A DNA stretch of 64,000 nucleotides from Lentzea guizhouensis (GTDB lineage: Bacteria; Actinomycetota; Actinomycetes; Mycobacteriales; Pseudonocardiaceae). The stretch lies in contig NZ_CP016793.1 in NCBI RefSeq assembly GCF_001701025.1, positions 5,084,001 to 5,148,000 of the forward strand, given 5' to 3'. The position numbers and the translations under genes are program-made. Under the pieces are notes generated by a model. It saw nothing but the letters and a program-made list of their open reading frames with translations, searched no databases and was not told where the DNA came from. Below, piece by piece: positions 1,649 to 17,580 of this stretch. Position 1 is the first letter of the stretch, and the number at the start of each line of letters is the position of its first letter.

Positions 1649-1954
1649 GTGTGGCCGTTCCGTCGATCCGTTGCCCTGCCCGTCGTCCGCGCCGACTGGC
1701 GGACGTTGCCGCCGTTGCAGCGGGTGGTGGGGGCGCATCCGCTGATCAACCCGGTGGGCGGGTTCTCGTCGCGGCTGGCGTCGTGGCAGAACCCGTCGTC
1801 GTTGGCGCCGCTTGGGCATGTGGTGAGTGCGGGGGCGCCTTCCGGGAGTGTTTCCGGGGTGGTGTCGGAGGCTGTGGGGGGTGCTGGGGTGTTTCCGGCT
1901 GCGCCGGTGGTGGCGCGGGCGGTGGAGGCGGGTGAGCCGTCGTCGGTGGGGTGA
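1649..1954 (+). CDS. N-terminal part of CIS linker protein, frame ends at a GTGA junction
   Basis: A 101-residue frame from GTG 1649. The start MWPFRRSVALPVVRADWRTL, then PPLQRVVGAHPLINPVGGF and ASWQNPSSLAPLGHVVS, is characteristic of a conserved N-terminus found in this position of actinobacterial CIS clusters. There, to my recollection, it belongs to one long protein that continues through a variable Pro/Val/Gln-rich region to an LYDPLVRRLKAEL end. Here the frame stops at 1952-1954, while the rest continues in the -1 frame from GTG 1951. The two frames are both open only within about 1936-1954. Either this is a separate, translationally coupled protein, or a -1 slip at GGGG (1948-1951) fuses them, or one base is missing from the sequence. 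Confidence 0.7.
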   Translation: MWPFRRSVALPVVRADWRTLPPLQRVVGAHPLINPVGGFSSRLASWQNPSSLAPLGHVVSAGAPSGSVSGVVSEAVGGAGVFPAAPVVARAVEAGEPSSVG

Positions 1955-4224
1955 GCGAGCCGCCGGTGGGGGTGGTTGAGCCGTCTGCAGGGGTGGGTGA
2001 GCCGCTGGTGCGCGTGGTTGAGCCGTCGGTGGGGGTGGTCGGGCGGGTGGACGCGCCGGCTGAGCCCGCTGGCGCTCCGGTTGGCTCGGTTGAGCGGGTT
2101 GAACCGGTTGGTCCGGTTGAGGCGGATGGCTCGGTTGAGCCGGTGGTGGCGGTCGGTTCGGTGGATGAGCCCGTGGGTGGTGTGGCGGCTTCGCGGGCGG
2201 TTGTGCCGGAGGTGGGTGCGCCTGCTCGGCCGAGGAAGTTGGGGTTGGGCGAGCCGATCGTGCAGCGCGCGGTGGAGCCGGGGGCGTCTCGCGGCGCGGC
2301 TGAAGTGGGGCCGTCGGGTGCTGGGCCGGGTGATGCGGGGCTGGCGGATGTGGTGCTGCCGGGGGTGGGTGGCGCTGATGTGACGGGTGCTGTGGGCAGT
2401 GCCGGGTTGGTCGGTGGTGTGGCGTCTGCGGGTGGGGCTGGGGTGGTGCAGCGTTCGGCCGATGCGGAGGCGGGCGGTGTGCGGCCGGATGTGCAGCGCC
2501 TGCATGGCCAGCCGCAGGTTGGTCAACTACCCGTGGTCCAGCCGTCCGTGGTCCAGCCGCTGGCGGTCCAGCCGCCGGTTGTGCAGCGGTCGGTTGTGCA
2601 GCGGTCGGTTGTGCAGCGGTCGGTGGGGGATGGCGGAGACGGTGCTGGTGGAGACGGGGCTGGAGTAAACGGGCATGGCGGGGCCGAGGTTTGGCAGGCG
2701 GTGGAGTCCGCGGGGCCGGGAGGTCGGGGGTCGGGTGAGGTTCGGGGATCGGCGACGCAGCGGGTAGAGGTCCAGCGCGCGGTTGCTCGGGGTGGGGGAG
2801 ACCAGGCGGTTGGCGTGCAGCGGATGAGCGCGCAGCCGGCGGATGCGCGGTCGGCTGGCGCAGGGTCGGCGGATGCAGGGTCGGTGGGCGCAGGGTCGGT
2901 GGGCGCGCGGTCATCGGGCGCGCAGGCGGTGGATGCGCAGGCCGCGGGTGCGTGGTCGTCGGGCGTGCAGGCGTCGGACATGCAGCAAGCGGGAGCACAG
3001 CCGATGGACACGCGGTCGGTGGACGCGCAACTGGTGGTTGCACGGTCGGTAGACACGGAACCGGGGGCAGCGCAGTCGATGGACGTGTGGTCGATGGGTG
3101 CGCAGCCGGTGGAAGCGCAGTCGATGAGTGCCCAACCGATGGATGCGCGGTCGCTGGAAGCACAGGCGGTGGATGCGCACTCGGTGAGCGGACGGACCGG
3201 GGACGGGTCGGTCGGGCGTGCGGGTGGCGGGCCTGTGGGCGTTCAACGGGTGGATGTGCAGCGGGTTGAGGCGGCGTGGACGGAGGATCGGCGGTGGGCG
3301 GACACCGGACCGGTGGAGGCGTCGCGGGTGGCGGGGCAGATGCCAGGTGTGCAAGGGCTGGGAGTCCAGCGAGTCGAGGGACACCGGGCGGAAGTCCGGC
3401 GCGCGGAGGGGCACCAGCCGACAGAACACCAGCCGACAGAACACCAGCCGGCTGAAGTTCAGCGCTCAGAAGACCAAGGCGCAGAGGCCCGCGAAGCGGG
3501 CTTCCAGCGAGCAGAGACCCAGGTGGCAGGCCAGCGAGTAGAAGTCCAGGGCGCGGAACAGCGCTTGGAAGTACGACCGGTGCAGAGGCAGCGGGACGAA
3601 GTTGCCGGGGCTCGCGGTCTGCAGGCAGAAGCGTCGCGGACTGATGGTCGGTGGGCCGACGTTCAACGGGTGGAGAGCACAGCGTCTGGGTCGCCTGTGG
3701 GGGTTCGGCTGCCGGAGGTGCGACAGGCGCAAGCCCGGCAGGCGGCGGTCGAGGTGCAGCGGGTGGTCGAGGTCGGGCCCGTGGACGTCCGGCACCCGGA
3801 GTTGCAGCGGCTCACGGTTCAGCAGGTGGAGACGAACCCCGCGCAACCACGGCAACCAGACGGGCAGCACGTCGGTGAGACCGGGTGGCCACACACCACG
3901 AGAGAACCCGTGCGACCGGCCGTGCAGCGTGCGGAAGCCGCTCAAAGCGTTGCACCACAACAGAGGCGGGAGGTGGCGCAGTTCGACCCACCCGAGCCCG
4001 CGAAAGCCCCACCGCTGGTCATCGCGAGAACCACCGAACCCGGACCCGGAACAGAACCCGGACCGGCACCCCAACCAGCGCAACAGGAACAACGCGTCGA
4101 GGCACCCAAACCCGAGCAGAGCCCCGAGGAGTTGCTGACCAAGTTGTACGACCCGCTCGTGAGGCGGTTGAAGGCGGAGCTGTGGCTGGACCGTGAGCGT
4201 CGAGGCGCGCTCACCGACCTTTAA
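1951..4224 (+). CDS. Very long low-complexity CIS linker protein with pentapeptide repeats
   Basis: A 757-residue frame starting at GTG 1951 in the GTGA overlap. It is almost wholly low complexity. Residues 1-190 are Val/Glu/Pro/Gly-rich. About 191-225 carry five-residue units of the type VVQPS/VVQRS. Residues 296-415 are 24 consecutive pentamers such as SVGAG, AVDAQ, SMGAQ and PMDAR, and the following part is rich in VQR and QP repeats. Only the end is ordered-looking: SPEELLTKLYDPLVRRLKAE then LWLDRERRG, a conserved C-terminus at this locus position in other CIS clusters. No enzyme motif is visible. An extended, disordered spacer or scaffold in the assembled particle is possible but is inference. 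The strong strand asymmetry of the repeats also creates a large artificial antisense frame. Confidence 0.7.
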   Translation: MSEPPVGVVEPSAGVGEPLVRVVEPSVGVVGRVDAPAEPAGAPVGSVERVEPVGPVEADGSVEPVVAVGSVDEPVGGVAASRAVVPEVGAPARPRKLGLGEPIVQRAVEPGASRGAAEVGPSGAGPGDAGLADVVLPGVGGADVTGAVGSAGLVGGVASAGGAGVVQRSADAEAGGVRPDVQRLHGQPQVGQLPVVQPSVVQPLAVQPPVVQRSVVQRSVVQRSVGDGGDGAGGDGAGVNGHGGAEVWQAVESAGPGGRGSGEVRGSATQRVEVQRAVARGGGDQAVGVQRMSAQPADARSAGAGSADAGSVGAGSVGARSSGAQAVDAQAAGAWSSGVQASDMQQAGAQPMDTRSVDAQLVVARSVDTEPGAAQSMDVWSMGAQPVEAQSMSAQPMDARSLEAQAVDAHSVSGRTGDGSVGRAGGGPVGVQRVDVQRVEAAWTEDRRWADTGPVEASRVAGQMPGVQGLGVQRVEGHRAEVRRAEGHQPTEHQPTEHQPAEVQRSEDQGAEAREAGFQRAETQVAGQRVEVQGAEQRLEVRPVQRQRDEVAGARGLQAEASRTDGRWADVQRVESTASGSPVGVRLPEVRQAQARQAAVEVQRVVEVGPVDVRHPELQRLTVQQVETNPAQPRQPDGQHVGETGWPHTTREPVRPAVQRAEAAQSVAPQQRREVAQFDPPEPAKAPPLVIARTTEPGPGTEPGPAPQPAQQEQRVEAPKPEQSPEELLTKLYDPLVRRLKAELWLDRERRGALTDL
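2521..3195 (+). repeat. 15-bp tandem repeat tracts encoding pentapeptides
   Basis: Two tracts inside the linker gene are built on a 15-bp period. At about 2521-2625 the units read VVQPS, VVQPL, AVQPP and VVQRS; the unit cggttgtgcagcggt is repeated exactly three times near 2577-2625. At 2836-3195, 24 degenerate units of 15 bp encode pentamers of the form [SPA]-x-[GDE]-A-[QRGW]. A shorter exact 15-bp duplication (encoding TEHQP twice) lies near 3418-3450. The in-frame period means copy number can change without breaking the gene. This is not a CRISPR array: there are no spacers. Confidence 0.85.
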
Positions 4225-9797: not shown

Positions 9798-10316
9798 ATG
9801 CCGATCTCACCGCACCCGCTCGGCGAACGCCTGCCGGCCGTCTACACCGACGACGACTTCACCCAGCGCTTCACCGCGGCCCTCGACGAGGTGCTCGCGC
9901 CGGTGTTCACCGTGCTCGACTGCTTCGCCGCCTACCTCGACCCGCGCCTCGCCCCCGCCGGCTTCGCCGACTGGCTCGCCGGCTGGGTCGCGCTCGACCT
10001 CGACGAGAGCTGGACCGCGTCACAACGGCGTGAGCTCGTCGCCCGCGCTGTGCACCTGCACCGCTTCCGCGGCACCAGGAGAGGTCTGGCCGAACACGTC
10101 TGGCTGCTCACCGGCGGCCGCGTCGAGATCGCCGACAGCGGCGGCACCGCCGTCTCCCCGCGCCCCGACGGCGCCCTGCCGGGCAGCTCGCCCGCCCACG
10201 TCCTGATCAGGATCCGGCTCGCCGACCCGCACGCGGTCGACCGGGCGAGGATCACCGCGGCGGTGCGCCGGATGGTGCCCGCCCACGTCGCCACGACCAT
10301 CGAGGTGGTCACATGA
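9798..10316 (+). CDS. Phage tail/baseplate protein I-like (Afp12/gpI-type)
   Basis: A 172-residue protein with the tail protein I pattern: HPLGERLPAVYTDDDFTQRF, LDCFAAYLDPRLAPAGFADW then LAGWVALDLDESW, and RAVHLHRFRGTRRGLAEHVW. These motifs mark the small baseplate partner of the gp6/J protein, which together form wedge dimers. It starts at ATG 9798, two bases after the gp6 stop, and its stop overlaps the next ATG (10313-10316). It is the last canonical structural gene of this cluster inside the window; the genes after it are envelope proteins. Confidence 0.9.
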   Translation: MPISPHPLGERLPAVYTDDDFTQRFTAALDEVLAPVFTVLDCFAAYLDPRLAPAGFADWLAGWVALDLDESWTASQRRELVARAVHLHRFRGTRRGLAEHVWLLTGGRVEIADSGGTAVSPRPDGALPGSSPAHVLIRIRLADPHAVDRARITAAVRRMVPAHVATTIEVVT

Positions 10317-11254
10317 TCGTCTGCCAGAGCTGCGGGGAGCACAACGCGCCGAACGCCGAGTTCTGCGGCCACTGCGATGATTTCCTGAAGTGGACCGGCA
10401 CGCCCGCCCAGACCGGCGCGGTCCGCCCGGACACGCGGCAGCAGGTGCTGCACCACCGTCCACAGCAGACCGAACGCAGACAGGCCCAGCCCGGTGACCT
10501 GATCTGCGGCCAGTGCGGGTCCGGCAACGTGCCCGCCCGCCGGTTCTGCGGCGTGTGCGGCCACTCGCTGGTCGACGCGGCCGTGCGGGAACGGCCGTGG
10601 TGGAAGCGCTGGCTGCCGGCGAAGGGCCCGAAGGTCAGACAGGGCGGCAGCCGCCCGCGCCGCACCAGCGGGGCCGCGCGGGTCCGCCACGGGATCGGTC
10701 TCGCGATCCGCTGGGTGCTCGCGCTCGCCGTGCTGCTCTTCGCCGCGCTGTACGGGTTCTCCCACCCGTTCCGCAGCAGCGTGAACACCCAGGTCGTCGC
10801 CGCCAAGGACGTCGTGGCCGGCGTGTTCGTCGACAACCCGGTGCCGGTGCGGCAGAGCGCCATCTCGGCCACCAGGGAGCTCCCCGACCACCCGGCCCGC
10901 CTCGCCATGGACAACGACAAGGGCACGTTCTGGGCCGCGCAGACCGACCCGGGGACCACCGCGCTGACCATCCAGTTCGACCACGTCACCGACCTGCGCC
11001 GGATGATCGTCCACATCGGCGACCCGAAGAAGTACCTGGGCTCGCAACGGCCGCAGCGGCTCACGCTGGTGTTCGACACCGGCAAGACCCACGACGTCAC
11101 GCTCACCGACGTGCCGGACCCCCAGGAGCACGCGATCAGGAACGGCGACGGCGTCCGGCAGGTGCAGGTGCTCGTCGCGGGCGTCTTCCCGTCCACCGAG
11201 AGCACGGACACGGCGATCGCCGAGATCGAGCTGTTCGAGAAGCAGGTGAAGTGA
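10313..11254 (+). CDS. Zinc-ribbon, single-pass membrane protein with C-terminal discoidin-like domain (CIS cluster)
   Basis: A 313-residue protein. The N-terminus has two zinc ribbons: CQSCGEHNAPNAEFCGHC and CGQCGSGNVPARRFCGVC. A basic stretch (RQGGSRPRRTS) precedes one membrane segment at about residues 132-152 (LAIRWVLALAVLLFAALYGF). The remaining ~160 residues look like a beta-sandwich of the NAD-glycohydrolase/discoidin (F5/8 type C-like) kind: LAMDNDKGTFWAAQTD, ALTIQFDHVTDLRRMIVHIG, ISATRELPDHPARL. The positive-inside rule places the zinc ribbons in the cytoplasm and the sandwich outside. It overlaps the gpI-like gene by 4 bp, so it belongs to the CIS operon. A role in tethering or envelope sensing is inferred from topology only. 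Confidence 0.8.
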   Translation: MIVCQSCGEHNAPNAEFCGHCDDFLKWTGTPAQTGAVRPDTRQQVLHHRPQQTERRQAQPGDLICGQCGSGNVPARRFCGVCGHSLVDAAVRERPWWKRWLPAKGPKVRQGGSRPRRTSGAARVRHGIGLAIRWVLALAVLLFAALYGFSHPFRSSVNTQVVAAKDVVAGVFVDNPVPVRQSAISATRELPDHPARLAMDNDKGTFWAAQTDPGTTALTIQFDHVTDLRRMIVHIGDPKKYLGSQRPQRLTLVFDTGKTHDVTLTDVPDPQEHAIRNGDGVRQVQVLVAGVFPSTESTDTAIAEIELFEKQVK

Positions 11255-14232
11255 TGCGCGCACTCGCGCTGGCCGTCGTCGCGCTGCTGGTGCTCCCGGT
11301 CCCCGTGGTGCACGCCCAGCAGGCTGAACCCGAGCCGTTCACCATCGGCTTCACCCGCAACGTCGACGGTGACAACCGCGAGGTCATGGCCGTCGACAGC
11401 AACGCGCAGAACTTGGCGAACCTGACGAACAACGAGCGCTACCAGCAGGAACCGGCGTTCTCGTTCGACGGCACCAAGCTCGCCTACGTGGACGACGAAC
11501 GCGTGGTGGTCGCCAACGCCGACGGCACGAACCCGCGCAGGCTCACCACTGACGACCGGCGGCAGGAGCACCCCGCGTGGTCCCCGGACGGCACGATGAT
11601 CGCTCTGGTCACCTGGTACCCCCAGGGCGATGGCCGCGTGCCCGTGGTGGAGGTCTACCGGGTCGCCGACGGCGCGCGGGTCGGTCAGATCGAGGTGCCT
11701 GACCACCTGGAGGGAAGCGACACCCAGCCGGACTGGTCGCCGGACGGCACGACCATCGCCCTGGTCCGCCGCGCCCGCCACGCCGTTCCGCCGCAGCTCG
11801 GCAGTCCGCGGACCGACCGGCCGGCCCGCCTGGGGAGCAGCTTCGACCTCGCCCAGGTCGTCAAGACCCCGCGCATCCCGCCGAAGCCGGACATCGTGCT
11901 GCTGATCGACGTCAGCCGCTCGATGGACGACGAGCTCGCCGGGGTGCAGCGCACGCTCGCCGAGATCGTGGAGGAGGTCGGCACCGCCCAGCCGGAGACG
12001 CAGTTCGGCCTTGCCTCGTTCGCCGGTCACGACAACGGCGACCGGATGTTCTACCGGCACAGCGAGCTCACGAAGAACCTCGGCAACGCCGTCAACGACA
12101 TCACGCTCGTGCCGAACCAGAACTCCGAGGAGGTGTGGGCGCACGCGTTGATCCGGGTCGCCACCGGCGAGTTCGACTTCCGGCCCGACTCGAGCCGCGT
12201 GGTCGTGCTGATCGGCGACGAGCCGACGGTGGAGCACGAGCCCGAGCAGGACGACACCGTCGACGCCGCCATCAAGGCGTTGCAGGAGCAGAACATCAAG
12301 ACCGTCGCCGTCGACAGCGGCGGGATCAACGCCACCGGCCAGGTCACCAGGGTCATCCGCGACCCGAAGGGCGCGCTGAAGACGTTCGACGAGAACGGGT
12401 CCGCGGAGATCAGCGAGGCGATCCTGGACGGCATCGGCGACCTGGAGGTCAAGATCACGCCGGTCCCGTCGTGCGACGAAGGCCTGAGCGTGGAGCTCGA
12501 CCCGGCCGGGCCGGTGACCGCGCCCAGCGGCCAGGACGTGCGGTTCGCCGAGAGGTTCACCGTCGCCGGCACCGCGGTGCCCGGCAGCACTCTGCGGTGC
12601 ACCATCGAGTTCCGGCTCAACAACGAGCAGGAGGCACCGCCCGCGTACACGCAGGTCGTCACCGTGCGCGTGGCCGGTTCCGCGCAACCGGTGGTGCTGG
12701 TCGAGGACGTGACCGCGCAGGCGCGGGACGACGGCGGCGCGCTGGTCCGGTACGAGGTCTCGGCCGTCGACAGGGAGGGGCGTCCGCTGGTCCCGGCCTG
12801 CGTTCCGCCGTCGGGGACCTTCTTCCCGGCCGGCGTGACGACCGTGCGCTGCACCGCGACCGACGCGCGGGGCAACACCGGCACCGACACGGCGATCGTC
12901 ACCGTGGTGTCGGCCGAGGAGCTCGGTTCGCGGATCTGGCTCGTCACCCCGGACGGCAGCACGCAGGTCGACCTGTCCGCGCGCTTCGCCGAACCCTGCT
13001 CCGGCAGCAACGACGAGGACCCGGCGTGGTCGCCGGACGGCACCCGGCTCGCGTTCACCCACGACGACGAGCGGATCTGCACGGTCGCGGCGGACGGATC
13101 CGGTGCCGTCACGGTGGTCCAGGACGGCGAGGTCGTCGAATGGCCGCGCAACCCGGCGTGGCTGCCCGACGGCACCAGGCTGCTCTTCGACGCCGCGGAC
13201 TCGGAGGCGGAACCGGACCTGTGGCGGGTGGCCGCGCAGGGCGGCACGCCGGAGCTGTTCCTGGCCGGCGGGAGCGAGCCGGCGGTGCGGCGACTGCCGA
13301 AGATCACCGTGACGGCGACCGCGGCACCGGCGCAGATCGCGTTCGGCGGCACGACGACCCTGGAGTTCACCGTCACGAACACCGGCTACGCGCCAGCACC
13401 GGTCACGCTCACCGTCACGCTCCCGGCCGGCCTGCAGGGACAACCGATCGGCGGCCCGGTGGGGTCCGTCGCGGCGGGGGAGACCAGGACCGTGCGCGGT
13501 GAGGCCAGGGGCGTTGTGGCCGGCGACCACGCCGTGACCGCCACAACGGGTTCCTCCACGGCCACGGTGACCGTGAAGGTCGCCGAGGAGGTCAAGCCAC
13601 CGGACACCCCGGGATCGCTGTCCCTGGCGGTCGGTGCGAGCCCGCAACCGGGGTTCGTCGGAGGGGACGCGGTCGAGGTGACGTTCAGGTTGCGCAACGG
13701 ATCCGGCACGCCGATGACCGACGTGCGGCTGATCGCGTCGGCGTTCGGCTGCCAGCCGGACTGCGTCGTCGGCACCGTCGCACCCGGCGCGGAGGCCGAG
13801 GTGAAGCTCGCGGTTCCCACCACGGCGGCCGTCGACGTCGACCTCGCCGGGGTGCTGACCGCGACCGGCCCGGACACCGATGCCGCCGACAACGTGGCGT
13901 CGACCAGGGTCGTGGTCAAGCAGCCCGCGCTCACGATGGACCAGCAGGCCGGGCCGCTCGGCGGTGTGGTCTCGGTGCAGGGCAAGGACTTCCCTCCGGG
14001 CGCCCGGGTCAGGCTGGCTTGGAGCGTCGGGATCTCCGAGACACCGGGCGAGCTGACGACCGCGGACGGCACGTTCAGCGCGCAGATGCTGGTGTTCCAC
14101 AACGACACCGAAGGAACCCGGCAGGCGCTGGCGACCTCGGTGGGCGGCACGCGGTTCGGTGAGGTGAAGGCAGCGGACTTCCTCGCCTGGCCGAGCACCG
14201 TGCAGCCCGCCGGTTTCGTCGAGCGCGGGTGA
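11254..14232 (+). CDS. Large secreted protein with beta-propeller, von Willebrand A and Ig-like domains (CIS cluster)
   Basis: A 992-residue protein with a clear signal peptide (MRALALAVVALLVLPVPVVH then AQQAEP). PD40/TolB-type blades occur at ~66-170 (AFSFDGTKLAYV, AWSPDGTMIALV, DWSPDGTTIALV) and again at ~588-670 (AWSPDGTRLAFTH, AWLPDGTRLLFDA). Between them lies a VWA domain (~212-400) with a complete metal-ion adhesion motif DVSRS at 219-223 and a later VVVLIGDEPT strand. A HYR-like domain (~480-552), CARDB/Ig-like repeats (~683-880) and a final Ig/IPT-like domain follow. It starts at ATG 11254 within the stop of the previous gene. The architecture suggests a surface or matrix adhesion/recognition protein made together with the injection system; its function is not established. 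Confidence 0.8.
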   Translation: MRALALAVVALLVLPVPVVHAQQAEPEPFTIGFTRNVDGDNREVMAVDSNAQNLANLTNNERYQQEPAFSFDGTKLAYVDDERVVVANADGTNPRRLTTDDRRQEHPAWSPDGTMIALVTWYPQGDGRVPVVEVYRVADGARVGQIEVPDHLEGSDTQPDWSPDGTTIALVRRARHAVPPQLGSPRTDRPARLGSSFDLAQVVKTPRIPPKPDIVLLIDVSRSMDDELAGVQRTLAEIVEEVGTAQPETQFGLASFAGHDNGDRMFYRHSELTKNLGNAVNDITLVPNQNSEEVWAHALIRVATGEFDFRPDSSRVVVLIGDEPTVEHEPEQDDTVDAAIKALQEQNIKTVAVDSGGINATGQVTRVIRDPKGALKTFDENGSAEISEAILDGIGDLEVKITPVPSCDEGLSVELDPAGPVTAPSGQDVRFAERFTVAGTAVPGSTLRCTIEFRLNNEQEAPPAYTQVVTVRVAGSAQPVVLVEDVTAQARDDGGALVRYEVSAVDREGRPLVPACVPPSGTFFPAGVTTVRCTATDARGNTGTDTAIVTVVSAEELGSRIWLVTPDGSTQVDLSARFAEPCSGSNDEDPAWSPDGTRLAFTHDDERICTVAADGSGAVTVVQDGEVVEWPRNPAWLPDGTRLLFDAADSEAEPDLWRVAAQGGTPELFLAGGSEPAVRRLPKITVTATAAPAQIAFGGTTTLEFTVTNTGYAPAPVTLTVTLPAGLQGQPIGGPVGSVAAGETRTVRGEARGVVAGDHAVTATTGSSTATVTVKVAEEVKPPDTPGSLSLAVGASPQPGFVGGDAVEVTFRLRNGSGTPMTDVRLIASAFGCQPDCVVGTVAPGAEAEVKLAVPTTAAVDVDLAGVLTATGPDTDAADNVASTRVVVKQPALTMDQQAGPLGGVVSVQGKDFPPGARVRLAWSVGISETPGELTTADGTFSAQMLVFHNDTEGTRQALATSVGGTRFGEVKAADFLAWPSTVQPAGFVERG

Positions 14233-14317
14233 CTTCCCCAACGGGCAGAGATGAGCGCACCCGGCCACGCCTGAACCGCCGCTGTGCGCCGGCAACCGGA
14301 CGAGGAGACTTCCTGAC

Positions 14318-15610
14318 ATGGGAGCAACAGCGACACTGTCCACTTCGGACCTGTCGGTCGCGCCGGGCGGGGACGCCACCTGCCAGGTGGTGGTCCGCAA
14401 CGCGGGTGAGCTGGTGGACCAGTTCACGATCGACGTCGTCGGCGAGGCGGCGTCGTGGAGCCACGCCGAACCGGCCGTGGTGAACCTCAACCCCGGCGAG
14501 TCGGCACCGGTGCTCATCCGGTTCGCCCCGCCCAGGGACGCGGGCGTGGCGGCGGGCCAGGTCCCGTTCGGCGTCCGGGTGGTCTCCCGCGAGGACCCGC
14601 ACGGCTCGGTCGTCGAGGAGGGCGCCGTCACCGTCGGCGCGTTCACCGACGTGGCCTCCGAACTGGTGCCCGCCAAGGCCGAGGGCAGCCGCGGAGCGAA
14701 GTTCCAGGTGGCCGTCGACAACGTCGGCAACTCGCCCGCGCTGTTGCGGCTGCGCGCCGTCGACCCCGAGGACGAGCTGGACTTCCGGCTGGACCGCACC
14801 GAGGTCGTGCTGCCGCCGGGCACGACCACGTTCGTCCGGCTGCGGGCCAAGCCCCGCAAGCGGTTCCTGCGCGGTGAGCCGCAACGCCACCCGTTCCAGG
14901 TCGAGGTCCTGCCCGAGCACGGTGAGCCGCTCGTCGCGCAGGGCACGATGGTGCAACGCCAACTGCTGCCGCGCTGGCTGCTCCCGGCGCTGATCACGTT
15001 GCTGCTGCTGGCCGCGGCCTTGGCGGCGCTGTGGTTCACCGTCGTCGAGAAGGCGGTGAAGTCGGCGGCGCGGGAGGCCGCGCAGCAGGAGAACGCGGCG
15101 ATCAAGGAGAAGGCCGAGGAGGCCGCGAGCACCGCCGGTGCCGCCAAGGACGAGTCGAAGCAGGCCGCCGCGAACGCCGGGCAGGCACTGGAGGCGCTGG
15201 GCATCGAGCCGGGCGACACCTCGGCCACCCCGACCCTGCCGAAGCCGGCCGAGCAGGGCGAGTCGATCACGTTCCGGCTCGACGCCAACGCGCCGATCGT
15301 GGCGAACAGGACCTCGTTCACCGAGTACACCTTCACGCCGCCGGCGGACAAGACGCTGGAGATCACCGACGTCTTCTTCGAGAACCCCAACGGCGACTCG
15401 GGCACCGCCCAGATCGTCCGGGACGCGTCCGGGACCAGGTTCACCTTCCGGGTGATCGGGCTCGGGAACTACCGGGACCGCGACGAGCACCTGCAGGAAC
15501 CGTTGCGCATTAAGCCGGGTGAGAAGGTCGTGTTCCGGGTGAACTGCCAGAACCAGGCGCCGAAGGGCCCGTGCACGCCCTCGGTGGTGTTCAACGGGCG
15601 TGCCGAGTGA
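14318..15610 (+). CDS. Bitopic membrane protein with cytoplasmic Ig-like repeats (CIS-associated 'hydrolytic protein' type)
   Basis: A 430-residue protein without signal peptide. Residues 1-~215 are two Ig-like repeats of the COG1470 kind (VAPGGDATCQVVVRNAGELV, NLNPGESAPVLIRFAPPRDA, FQVAVDNVGNSPALLRLRAV). A membrane segment at about 219-240 (LLPALITLLLLAAALAALWF) is followed by an Ala/Glu/Lys-rich helix (~245-290) and a C-terminal beta domain (~300-430). The RKR and RQLLPRW residues before the segment favour N-inside. It is separated from the previous gene by 85 bp, with CGAGGAG upstream of ATG. Proteins of this type accompany actinobacterial CIS loci; in Streptomyces a bitopic membrane protein (CisA) links CIS to cell death, and this could be a functional counterpart, but that is inference. 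Confidence 0.78.
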   Translation: MGATATLSTSDLSVAPGGDATCQVVVRNAGELVDQFTIDVVGEAASWSHAEPAVVNLNPGESAPVLIRFAPPRDAGVAAGQVPFGVRVVSREDPHGSVVEEGAVTVGAFTDVASELVPAKAEGSRGAKFQVAVDNVGNSPALLRLRAVDPEDELDFRLDRTEVVLPPGTTTFVRLRAKPRKRFLRGEPQRHPFQVEVLPEHGEPLVAQGTMVQRQLLPRWLLPALITLLLLAAALAALWFTVVEKAVKSAAREAAQQENAAIKEKAEEAASTAGAAKDESKQAAANAGQALEALGIEPGDTSATPTLPKPAEQGESITFRLDANAPIVANRTSFTEYTFTPPADKTLEITDVFFENPNGDSGTAQIVRDASGTRFTFRVIGLGNYRDRDEHLQEPLRIKPGEKVVFRVNCQNQAPKGPCTPSVVFNGRAE

Positions 15611-15624
15611 GCCCGCTCCCAGGC

Positions 15625-16251
15625 TCAGATCAGGCCTTCCCGCAACGCGAAGGCCACGGCGTGGGCGCGGTTGCGCAGCTGGAAGCGGTTGGTGATGTCG
15701 TGCAGGATCGACTTCACCGTCCGCTGCGAGTAGCACAACCGTTCCGCGATCTCCTTGGTCTCCAGGCCGTCCGCGATCATCCGCAGCACCTCGGTCTCCC
15801 GGCTGGACATGCCGGCGAGGTTGAGGCCGTTGGGGCGCAGCACGTTGCGCTGCAGCTGCGACACCCGGCCGAGCAGCCGCCCGAGCAGGTCGGCCGGCAG
15901 CGCGCCCTCACCGGCGTGCGCGGCCTTGATCAGGCGCACCAGCGTGTCCGGGGTGGCCTCGGCCCTGCGCAGCACCGCGGACACCCCGCTCGACACCACG
16001 TCGAGCAGCTCGGCGTCGGCCACGTCACCGGCCACGAGCACGATGCCCTGACCGGGTTGGCACTGCAGCTTGCGCAGCAGCTGCCGGACGGTGTCGTCCA
16101 TCTTCTCGGCGACGACCAGCGCCACGCAGGTCTCGCCGACCTCGGGCTCGACCAGCCGGATCTCGGTGCGGCCGCGCAACGCCACGGTCACGCCCGCCCT
16201 GGTGATCGAGTCGGTGGCGTGCAGGACTACCTCGACGGGTTCCGCGTTCAT
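15625..16251 (-). CDS. LuxR-family regulator with degenerate receiver domain
   Basis: A 208-residue protein. The C-terminus is a clear LuxR/GerE helix-turn-helix: LAGMSSRETEVLRMIADGLE, TKEIAERLCYSQRTVKSIL, HDITNRFQLRNRAHAVAF. The first ~125 residues follow the receiver fold (VEVVLHATDSITRAGVTVAL, GIVLVAGDVADAELLDVVSS, GVSAVLRRAEATPDTLVRLI) but lack the acidic pair after strand 1 and the phospho-Asp after strand 3. It therefore cannot be phosphorylated in the usual way and is a pseudo-receiver. ATG 16251 has GGGGAGAG upstream. It lies convergent to the CIS genes and downstream of the two-component pair; its target could be the CIS operon, which is inference from position. Confidence 0.88.
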   Translation of the reverse strand: MNAEPVEVVLHATDSITRAGVTVALRGRTEIRLVEPEVGETCVALVVAEKMDDTVRQLLRKLQCQPGQGIVLVAGDVADAELLDVVSSGVSAVLRRAEATPDTLVRLIKAAHAGEGALPADLLGRLLGRVSQLQRNVLRPNGLNLAGMSSRETEVLRMIADGLETKEIAERLCYSQRTVKSILHDITNRFQLRNRAHAVAFALREGLI

Positions 16252-16282
16252 CAGCTCTCCCCTTCTGACGTCAGCGAACCCA

Positions 16283-16945
16283 TCATCCGGCGCCGGGCGT
16301 CCCGTCCGACATGGGCAGTGTTCCCGAACTGTCCCGGATCCGGTCCACCGCCTGCGCGCGGTCGGCGGCGTGCAGCTTGCGCAGGATGTTCGACACGTGG
16401 TTGCGCACGGTTTTCGTGCTGAGCACGAGGTCCCGCGCGATGGTGGCGTTGCCCTTGCCCGCGGCCATGAGGTTCGCGATCTCGCGTTCGCGGGAGGTGA
16501 GCTCCGGCATGGCCTCCGGGCGCGGCGCGGACGTGAAGAACTCCAGCAGCCTGGTCGCCACGGCCGGGCTGAAGATCGCCTCGCCGTCGCCGACCGCACG
16601 CACGGCGTCCACGATCTGCTGCGGGCGCGAGGACTTCACCAGGTACCCGCGGGCACCGGCGCGCATCGCCGCGAACACCGACTCGTCGTCGTCGAACATC
16701 GTCAGCACCAGCACCCGCGCGGCCGGCCTGGCCGCGACGATCCGCCTGGTCGCCTCGATGCCGCCCACCCCGGGCATGTTGAGGTCCATGACGATCACGT
16801 CGGGCTGCAGCTCCGACGCCAGCTCGACGGCCGCCGCGCCGTTGGAGGCCTCGTCCACGACCGTGATGCCGTTGTCGGTCAACGCCGCCGTGACACCGCG
16901 GCGGAACATCGGGTGGTCGTCCACGACCAACGCCCTGAGCGTCAT
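16283..16945 (-). CDS. NarL/FixJ-type response regulator
   Basis: A 220-residue two-component response regulator. The receiver has D9/D10 (LVVDDHPMFRRGV), phosphorylation site D54 (VIVMDLNMPG), the switch region VLVLTMFDDDE and the conserved Lys in GARGYLVKSS. The LuxR-type DNA-binding domain follows: MPELTSREREIANLMAAGKG, NATIARDLVLSTKTVRNHVS, NILRKLHAADRAQAVDRIRD. It starts at ATG 16945, overlapping the kinase stop by 4 bp, so the pair is co-translated. Its partner is the soluble kinase at 16942-17580. The 31-bp gap to the pseudo-receiver LuxR gene suggests one transcript of three genes. Confidence 0.95.
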   Translation of the reverse strand: MTLRALVVDDHPMFRRGVTAALTDNGITVVDEASNGAAAVELASELQPDVIVMDLNMPGVGGIEATRRIVAARPAARVLVLTMFDDDESVFAAMRAGARGYLVKSSRPQQIVDAVRAVGDGEAIFSPAVATRLLEFFTSAPRPEAMPELTSREREIANLMAAGKGNATIARDLVLSTKTVRNHVSNILRKLHAADRAQAVDRIRDSSGTLPMSDGTPGAG

Positions 16946-17580
16946 GGCACGGGCAGTGCCGCGGCCAGGCGGGTGCCACCGGCCGACCGGGGTTCGACGA
17001 GGCAGTCGCCGCCCAGCTCGGTGGCCCGCTGCCGCATCGACGCGAGACCCACGCCCGAGCCGGTCTGCTGCGCACCGCGGCCGTCGTCGACCACCTCGAC
17101 GTGCAGCGACCCCTCGAACCACAGCGTGACCCGGCACGTCCGCGCGTCGGCGTGCGTGACGACGTTCGTGAGCGCCTCGCGGACGATCCGGTACGCGGCC
17201 ACGCCCACCGCGTCCGGCAACGGCGGCAGCTCACCGCGCACGACCACGTCGATCGTCACGCACAGCCGCGACCGCAACGCGGCGACGAACTGCGAGACCG
17301 CTCCGACCAGCCCCAGCCGCAGCACCGACGCCGGGTTCTCGTTCGCGACCAGTGCCCTGATGTCGTCGATCGCCGAGTGCAGCTCGTCCTCCAGCGAGGC
17401 GAGCAACCGCGCCGCCGCCACCGGGTCGGCCGCGACGAGCTGCCTGGCCGAGCGCAGGCCGAGCGCGACGGCCGCGAGCGAGGGCCCGACGCCGTCGTGG
17501 AGGTCGCGCAGCACCGTGCGGCGCGCCTCTGCCGCACTCCGGTCACATGTCTCCGCTGGCACGATGAATTGGCGGCGCAT
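16942..17580 (-). CDS. Soluble histidine kinase (HisKA_3/HATPase), no sensor domain
   Basis: A 212-residue kinase core of the NarX/DesK/LiaS type. The phospho-acceptor is H28 in LRDLHDGVGPSLAAVALGL, followed by the dimerisation helices. The ATP-binding domain has an N-box-like REALTNVVTHADARTCRVTL and the G1 region VVDDGRGAQQTGSGVGLASM. There is no transmembrane helix, PAS or GAF domain before the H box, so input must come from a partner protein or directly from the catalytic core. ATG 17580 is the first Met; upstream codons are not coding-like. It is co-transcribed with the response regulator and divergent from the gene at 17771. Confidence 0.92.
   Translation of the reverse strand: MRRQFIVPAETCDRSAAEARRTVLRDLHDGVGPSLAAVALGLRSARQLVAADPVAAARLLASLEDELHSAIDDIRALVANENPASVLRLGLVGAVSQFVAALRSRLCVTIDVVVRGELPPLPDAVGVAAYRIVREALTNVVTHADARTCRVTLWFEGSLHVEVVDDGRGAQQTGSGVGLASMRQRATELGGDCLVEPRSAGGTRLAAALPVP

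What the first reader, a model, noticed from the sequence alone, without database searches (positions are those of the whole stretch)
10313..15610. Three envelope proteins co-encoded with a contractile injection system
Directly after the last baseplate gene, and partly in 4-bp overlap, come a zinc-ribbon/TM/discoidin-like protein, a 992-residue secreted beta-propeller-VWA-Ig protein and a bitopic Ig-repeat protein. Topology predicts cytoplasmic domains that could meet the particle and outer domains that could sense or adhere. Together they look like a dedicated docking and surface module, so this CIS may act at the cell's own envelope rather than as a free particle. Membrane partners of CIS are known in Streptomyces (CisA), but this three-part set with an intact MIDAS motif is unusual to me.
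Basis: partly seen in the sequence, partly recalled or inferred. Interest (0 to 1): 0.72.

Follow-up and report, generated by a model that had tools for sequence, protein, structure and literature searches.

The report
Envelope proteins of a cell-death injector
Next to the genes for a phage-tail-like injection machine in a soil bacterium sit a known kind of membrane adaptor, a member of a known family of cell-killing membrane proteins, and a little-studied exported protein that travels with one version of that family, which gives a testable idea of how the machine acts on the cell's own envelope.

Summary
In detail: after the last baseplate gene (gpI) come three genes with the stated domains, coordinates and MIDAS motif. 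The reading is half right. P0001 is a CisA (Sco4242) homologue: same place, zinc ribbon, one TM, discoidin-like C-terminal domain; CisA is published as the membrane adaptor. P0003 is not a new docking protein: its first ~300 residues (two Ig domains plus TM) are homologous to the Sco4256-4258 type, published as CIS-associated effectors; its last ~115 residues are a different beta-sandwich. The family tracks this kind of CIS: found in 53 of 53 genomes with a strong gpJ match (150 sampled) and 97 of 97 (199 Streptomyces), though not in 13 genomes with only weak gpJ matches. P0002 is the newest part: a predicted exported TolB-like propeller with an integrin-beta-like VWA/Ig insert and a conserved C-terminal region. 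In the Streptomyces sample that region occurs in 44 of 46 genomes with the P0003 type and 1 of 52 with the other type. I propose P0002 is the exported partner of P0003-type effectors. Binding is untested; a co-divergence test gave no support, and 8 of 34 relatives' loci lack it. New variant of a known kind.

The parts
9798..10316 (+). gpI / Tail_P2_I baseplate wedge protein (P0004), last baseplate gene
   Evidence: Pfam PF09684 46.9 bits; TIGR02242 115.7 bits, partial CIS12 match below cut-off
10313..11254 (+). P0001, CisA (Sco4242) homologue, 313 aa
   Evidence: position after gpI, zinc ribbons, TM, NADase_discoid CTD; family alignment A2
10694..10750 (+). P0001 transmembrane segment, residues 128-146
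   Evidence: hydropathy, N-flank net charge +5
10874..11230 (+). P0001 NADase-type discoidin domain, residues 188-306
   Evidence: NF047619 61.3 bits, cut-off 38; profile A2 matches PDB chain 7ji1 at E 2.3e-13
11254..14232 (+). P0002, predicted exported 992-aa TolB-like propeller / VWA / Ig protein
11323..11781 (+). P0002 first part of the propeller, residues 24-176
   Evidence: AF2 model; VIA match to TolB spans 24-682 with 257 aligned residues
11890..12438 (+). P0002 VWA domain inserted in the propeller, residues 213-395; motif DVSRS at 11908-11922
12916..13299 (+). P0002 second part of the propeller, residues 555-682
   Evidence: PD40 stretches
13600..14229 (+). P0002 conserved C-terminal region (A4), residues 783-992, linked to P0003-type proteins
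   Evidence: alignment A4
14318..15610 (+). P0003, member of the Sco4256-4258-type family, 430 aa
14318..14965 (+). P0003 two PapD/ASH-like Ig domains, residues 1-216 (cytoplasmic by inference)
14990..15046 (+). P0003 transmembrane segment, residues 225-243
   Evidence: helix 221-293 in the model
15260..15607 (+). P0003 C-terminal beta-sandwich, residues 315-430 (two conserved Cys)
   Evidence: AF2; C410 and C419 invariant in A5

Best explanation
These genes are the envelope arm of an intracellular contractile injection system related to CIS-Sc of Streptomyces. P0001 is a CisA-type adaptor: zinc-ribbon part in the cytoplasm towards the baseplate, glycan-binding discoidin domain outside (homology shown; topology and role inferred from published CisA). 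P0003 is a Sco4256-4258-type protein: two Ig domains inside, one membrane helix, C-terminal domain outside (homology shown; effector role inferred). P0002 is exported by its signal segment and waits outside the membrane; it goes with the P0003 type of C-terminal domain and hardly with the lectin or wall-binding types that replace it elsewhere (shown by distribution in Streptomyces). Proposed mechanism: CisA brings the particle to the membrane, firing needs or delivers the P0003-type protein, and its outer domain acts on the envelope together with P0002, where other strains use a built-in lectin or wall-binding domain (inferred).
For: CisA: a profile from Pseudonocardiaceae relatives scores 156.8 bits on a 468-aa CisA-like protein of genome G331, 468 being the published length; P0001 alone 64 bits, 28% identity. 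The gene follows gpI directly in 25 of 32 and 60 of 65 loci with a called gpI (loci chosen for hits). P0003: 33% identity over 296 residues, E 2e-50, to a ricin-type tandem protein. In nine of ten tandem loci viewed the relatives lie reverse between sheath and AAA, the Sco4256-4258 place; the tenth stretch does not reach the sheath. Nine of nine CIS-located copies scanned end in ricin (5), ChW (2) or PG_binding_1 (2) domains. Co-occurrence with strong gpJ: 53 of 53 and 97 of 97 genomes. P0002 C-terminal region: 44 of 46 genomes with the full-length P0003 type, 48 of 58 such loci within 10 kb; 1 of 52 genomes with the other type. Papers: PMC12237407, PMC10066040, PMC10020575 (sections and passages read).
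Against: In 8 of 34 Pseudonocardiaceae loci no P0002-type C-terminal region lies within 8 kb of the P0003 homologue. Thirteen of the 150 family genomes have only weak gpJ matches (E 4.7e-49 or worse) and no P0003 homologue, so other tail or CIS kinds do without it. Genome G187, outside the Streptomyces sample, has both P0003 types in two loci. Mirror-tree tests gave no specific P0002-P0003 signal (partial r 0.18, p 0.08 in 25 loci; -0.06 in 35). The linkage is spread over few CIS lineages, so genomes are not independent. Effector status rests on published work on the S. coelicolor proteins; CisA too is toxic in E. coli, so toxicity does not separate cargo from resident. A tape-measure-like ORF upstream (R1098, weak match) could be the real cargo. 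S. coelicolor's own sequences were not fetched; the link to Sco4256-4258 goes by architecture, place, tandem number and the shared name 'hydrolytic protein'.
Confidence: 0.6

Rival explanations
1. All three proteins are resident in the envelope: a dedicated docking and surface platform, with P0003 anchoring and P0002 sensing or adhering.
Against: Relatives of P0003 swap C-terminal domains as effectors do, and loss of Sco4256-4258 empties the tube lumen (PMC10066040). The P0002 C-terminal region is not found in 51 of 52 Streptomyces genomes with the other P0003 type, and in the three such loci whose stretch reached that far a CisA-like gene is still present.
Confidence: 0.25
2. P0002 is an exported immunity or control protein that binds and blocks the outer domain of P0003 until stress, rather than a co-effector.
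For: Pairing with one C-terminal type and near absence with the others; adjacency, often in divergent orientation.
Against: It is about 1000 aa with many domains, unlike usual immunity proteins (recalled); no P0002-type gene was called in the ten tandem-type stretches viewed; no co-divergence signal.
Confidence: 0.2
3. P0002 is a CIS tail fibre or an injected VWA toxin.
For: Its gene lies near where fibre genes lie; VWA domains are listed among eCIS toxin domains (PMC8213781, passage) and with one class of eCIS fibres (PMC12923769, passage).
Against: N-terminal signal-like segment would export it away from a cytoplasmic particle; in most Streptomyces and other loci viewed the gene lies beside cis16.
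Confidence: 0.05

Closest known systems
CisA (Sco4242) of Streptomyces coelicolor
   Same: Place after the last baseplate gene, Cys-rich zinc domain, one TM, ~160-aa glycan-binding C-terminal domain; homology to a CisA-like protein of a S. coelicolor-type locus detectable
   Different: P0001 has a shorter cytoplasmic part (127 against about 285 residues) with two zinc ribbons; 28% identity in the aligned part
Sco4256-4258 ('hydrolytic proteins'), CIS-associated effectors
   Same: Chaperone-like Ig pair, one TM, CIS-bound; constant part 33% identical to a ricin-type relative
   Different: C-terminal beta-sandwich instead of lectin, ChW or peptidoglycan-binding domain; single copy here; paired with P0002
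TolB (Tol-Pal)
   Different: Far below the TolB equivalog cut-off (73.8 against 343 bits); carries a VWA/Ig insert and C-terminal Ig-like domains; host is a Gram-positive (recalled)
Integrin beta headpiece (VWA/betaI plus hybrid domain)
   Different: rmsd 8-10, so domain angles differ; here the module is inserted in a bacterial propeller
WxLIP and PapD-like chaperones
   Different: No sequence match in the PDB; in P0003 without signal peptide and before a TM

Membership tests
CisA | Gene directly after the last baseplate gene of a class IId-type CIS | tested here: met
   4-bp overlap with gpI; 25 of 32 and 60 of 65 loci. The IId class itself was not assigned here
CisA | Cys-rich zinc domain before a single TM | tested here: met
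   PF13240/PF12773, TM 128-146
CisA | Conserved ~150-aa sugar-binding C-terminal domain | tested here: met
   NF047619 61.3 bits; alignment A2
CisA | Long, mostly unstructured cytoplasmic N-terminal region | tested here: inconclusive
   127 residues with two zinc ribbons; length varies in A2
CisA | N-in/C-out topology, needed for firing | not testable with these tools
   known for CisA only (PMC12237407)
Sco4256-4258 effector family | First domain like pilus chaperones | tested here: met
Sco4256-4258 effector family | Single TM after that domain | tested here: met
   225-243
Sco4256-4258 effector family | CIS-bound distribution | tested here: met
   53 of 53 and 97 of 97 genomes with strong gpJ; 1 genome each with the family but without such a gpJ
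Sco4256-4258 effector family | Lectin/toxin-like C-terminal domain (said of about a third of homologues) | tested here: not met
   beta-sandwich without lectin match; not a universal feature by PMC10020575
Sco4256-4258 effector family | Direct homology to S. coelicolor Sco4256-4258 | tested here: inconclusive
   same place, tandem, ricin C-termini in other Streptomyces; own sequences not fetched
Sco4256-4258 effector family | Loaded in the tube, toxic | not testable with these tools
   published for the S. coelicolor proteins only
TolB | Reaches the TolB equivalog cut-off | tested here: not met
   TIGR02800 73.8 of 343 bits
VWA with MIDAS | DxSxS motif | tested here: met
   DVSRS 219-223; metal binding not tested

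The most novel reading that the evidence does not exclude
P0002 and P0003 form one signal path across the membrane: an integrin-like exported head (propeller plus VWA with MIDAS) senses wall, ion or neighbour-cell state and, through the outer beta-sandwich and helix of P0003, licenses CisA-dependent firing of the cytoplasmic particle, so that cell death is gated from outside.
Probability: 0.12. Interest if true: 0.85.

Novelty: new variant of a known kind. Interest (0 to 1): 0.6.

Why it matters
How intracellular CIS are told to fire and what they do to the membrane is open. Casu 2023 found effector homologues in 47 of 94 CIS-positive Streptomyces (section read); here the wider family is found in all 97 gpJ-positive genomes of a 199-genome sample, about half with the P0003 type of C-terminus and, nearly always, an exported partner. 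That suggests the other half of the strains use a two-protein version, and it names one gene pair to delete.

Tried and rejected
P0002 as tail fibre or injected VWA toxin: disfavoured by its signal segment and its place in other loci. P0002 as TolB: cut-off not reached. MIDAS as the core of the set: disfavoured, Pfam found a VWA in 5 of 8 relatives scanned and not in the one Streptomyces copy among them; two weak Streptomyces rows (P0227, P0228) do carry one. My first motif count (DxSxS by pattern) suggested loss of the site in Saccharothrix; the alignment showed a DxTxS form, so that claim was dropped.

Led nowhere: mirror-tree tests for P0002-P0003 contact were negative, and the CisA-P0003 signal seen in 35-36 loci vanished in 25. 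No PDB sequence match for P0003. No exported propeller partner of Streptomyces CIS came up in the paper searches (listings, and passages of the papers opened; PMC library, most subscription papers missing). Papers opened for passages only: PMC12923769, PMC8213781, PMC10286715, PMC11126660, PMC2000904, PMC9282665, PMC5826349; one section and passages of PMC13277306.

Rows dropped before counts: one search left out six second-segment rows and all rows weaker than E 1e-120; one search used rows down to E 7e-37 and left out two C-terminal fragments (G297, G225), which make these two genomes likely split P0003-type genomes counted as the other type; one search left out five Streptomyces genomes with weak matches (E 8.5e-7 or worse), none of which has gpJ. 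The lists were cut at their weak ends. The profile behind the 26 of 34 and 11 of 11 counts was built from 16 of these and all 11, so only ten of the hits (L123-L132, 38-70 bits) are new.

Full report
What is there. The window lies at 5,084,001-5,148,000 of a 10-Mb single-contig genome, by its nearest named relatives a Lentzea (inference). The CIS locus begins upstream: Pvc16_N and AAA genes, then reverse-strand genes, then sheath, tubes, spike, gp25, gpJ, gpI. After gpI follow P0001, P0002 and P0003, then reverse LuxR, response regulator and histidine kinase genes.

P0001. Two zinc ribbons, one TM (128-146), and a C-terminal domain that passes the NCBIfam NADase_discoid cut-off (61.3 against 38 bits). 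Published CisA/Sco4242 has a Cys-rich zinc domain, a TM and a sugar-binding domain, is N-in/C-out and is needed for contraction (PMC10020575 section 11; PMC12237407 sections 3, 7, 9; PMC10066040 discussion). A profile from Pseudonocardiaceae relatives scores 156.8 bits on the 468-aa protein in the same place of genome G331, 468 being the published length of CisA; P0001 alone reaches 64 bits. Among 80 named loci found through this family (80 kept of 184), 60 of the 65 with a called gpI have the gene directly downstream; in the 34 Pseudonocardiaceae loci, chosen for hits, it is 25 of 32, with five directly upstream. P0001 is therefore a CisA homologue.

Mechanism. Shown: homologies, linkage, predicted topology. 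Inferred: CisA-type P0001 recruits the particle; P0003 spans the membrane with its C-terminal domain outside, where exported P0002 is. Since the C-terminal domains that replace it in the nine CIS-located copies scanned are, by family name, sugar- or wall-binding, I take P0003's outer domain with P0002 to do the same work in two pieces. Rivals: P0002 is immunity or a sensor; or all three are residents. Co-divergence gave no support for contact.

Known and new. CisA and the effector family are known; Vladimirov 2023 note Sco4256 homologues in 90% of 105 Streptomyces class IId loci and in other actinomycetes, so P0003-type proteins may be among those. [quoted passage not shown] The finding is best called a new variant of a known kind, of fair interest because it makes one clear deletion experiment possible.

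Noticed in passing
L111:11934-15230 (-), about 4.8-8.1 kb before the window start: 1098-aa reverse ORF between AAA and sheath with a weak tape-measure match (phrog_4070); relatives beside CIS in L120 and in Cellulomonas aerilata L162. Candidate Sle1-like cargo; no match to the Sle1-position genes of the Streptomyces loci viewed was called.
   Followed up: partly
window 1951-4224 (+): 757-aa low-complexity ORF inside the CIS operon with many 15-45-bp tandem repeats, no Pfam match.
   Followed up: no
L111:16229-18712 (-): MFS transporter and CBM96-metallophosphatase genes on the reverse strand before the sheath gene.
   Followed up: no
window 15625-17580 (-): LuxR, response regulator and short histidine kinase after P0003, kept in L113-L122; the kinase-like gene is much longer in some other loci (L126-L129).
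   Followed up: no
L283:6733-7995, L284:6706-7983: Kutzneria genes with the P0003 N-terminal part away from CIS genes; the L283 copy ends in DUF4232.
   Followed up: partly
L139-L150: Several genomes carry a second, distant CIS class whose P0002/P0003 pair lies at the end of the locus opposite to the baseplate genes.
   Followed up: partly
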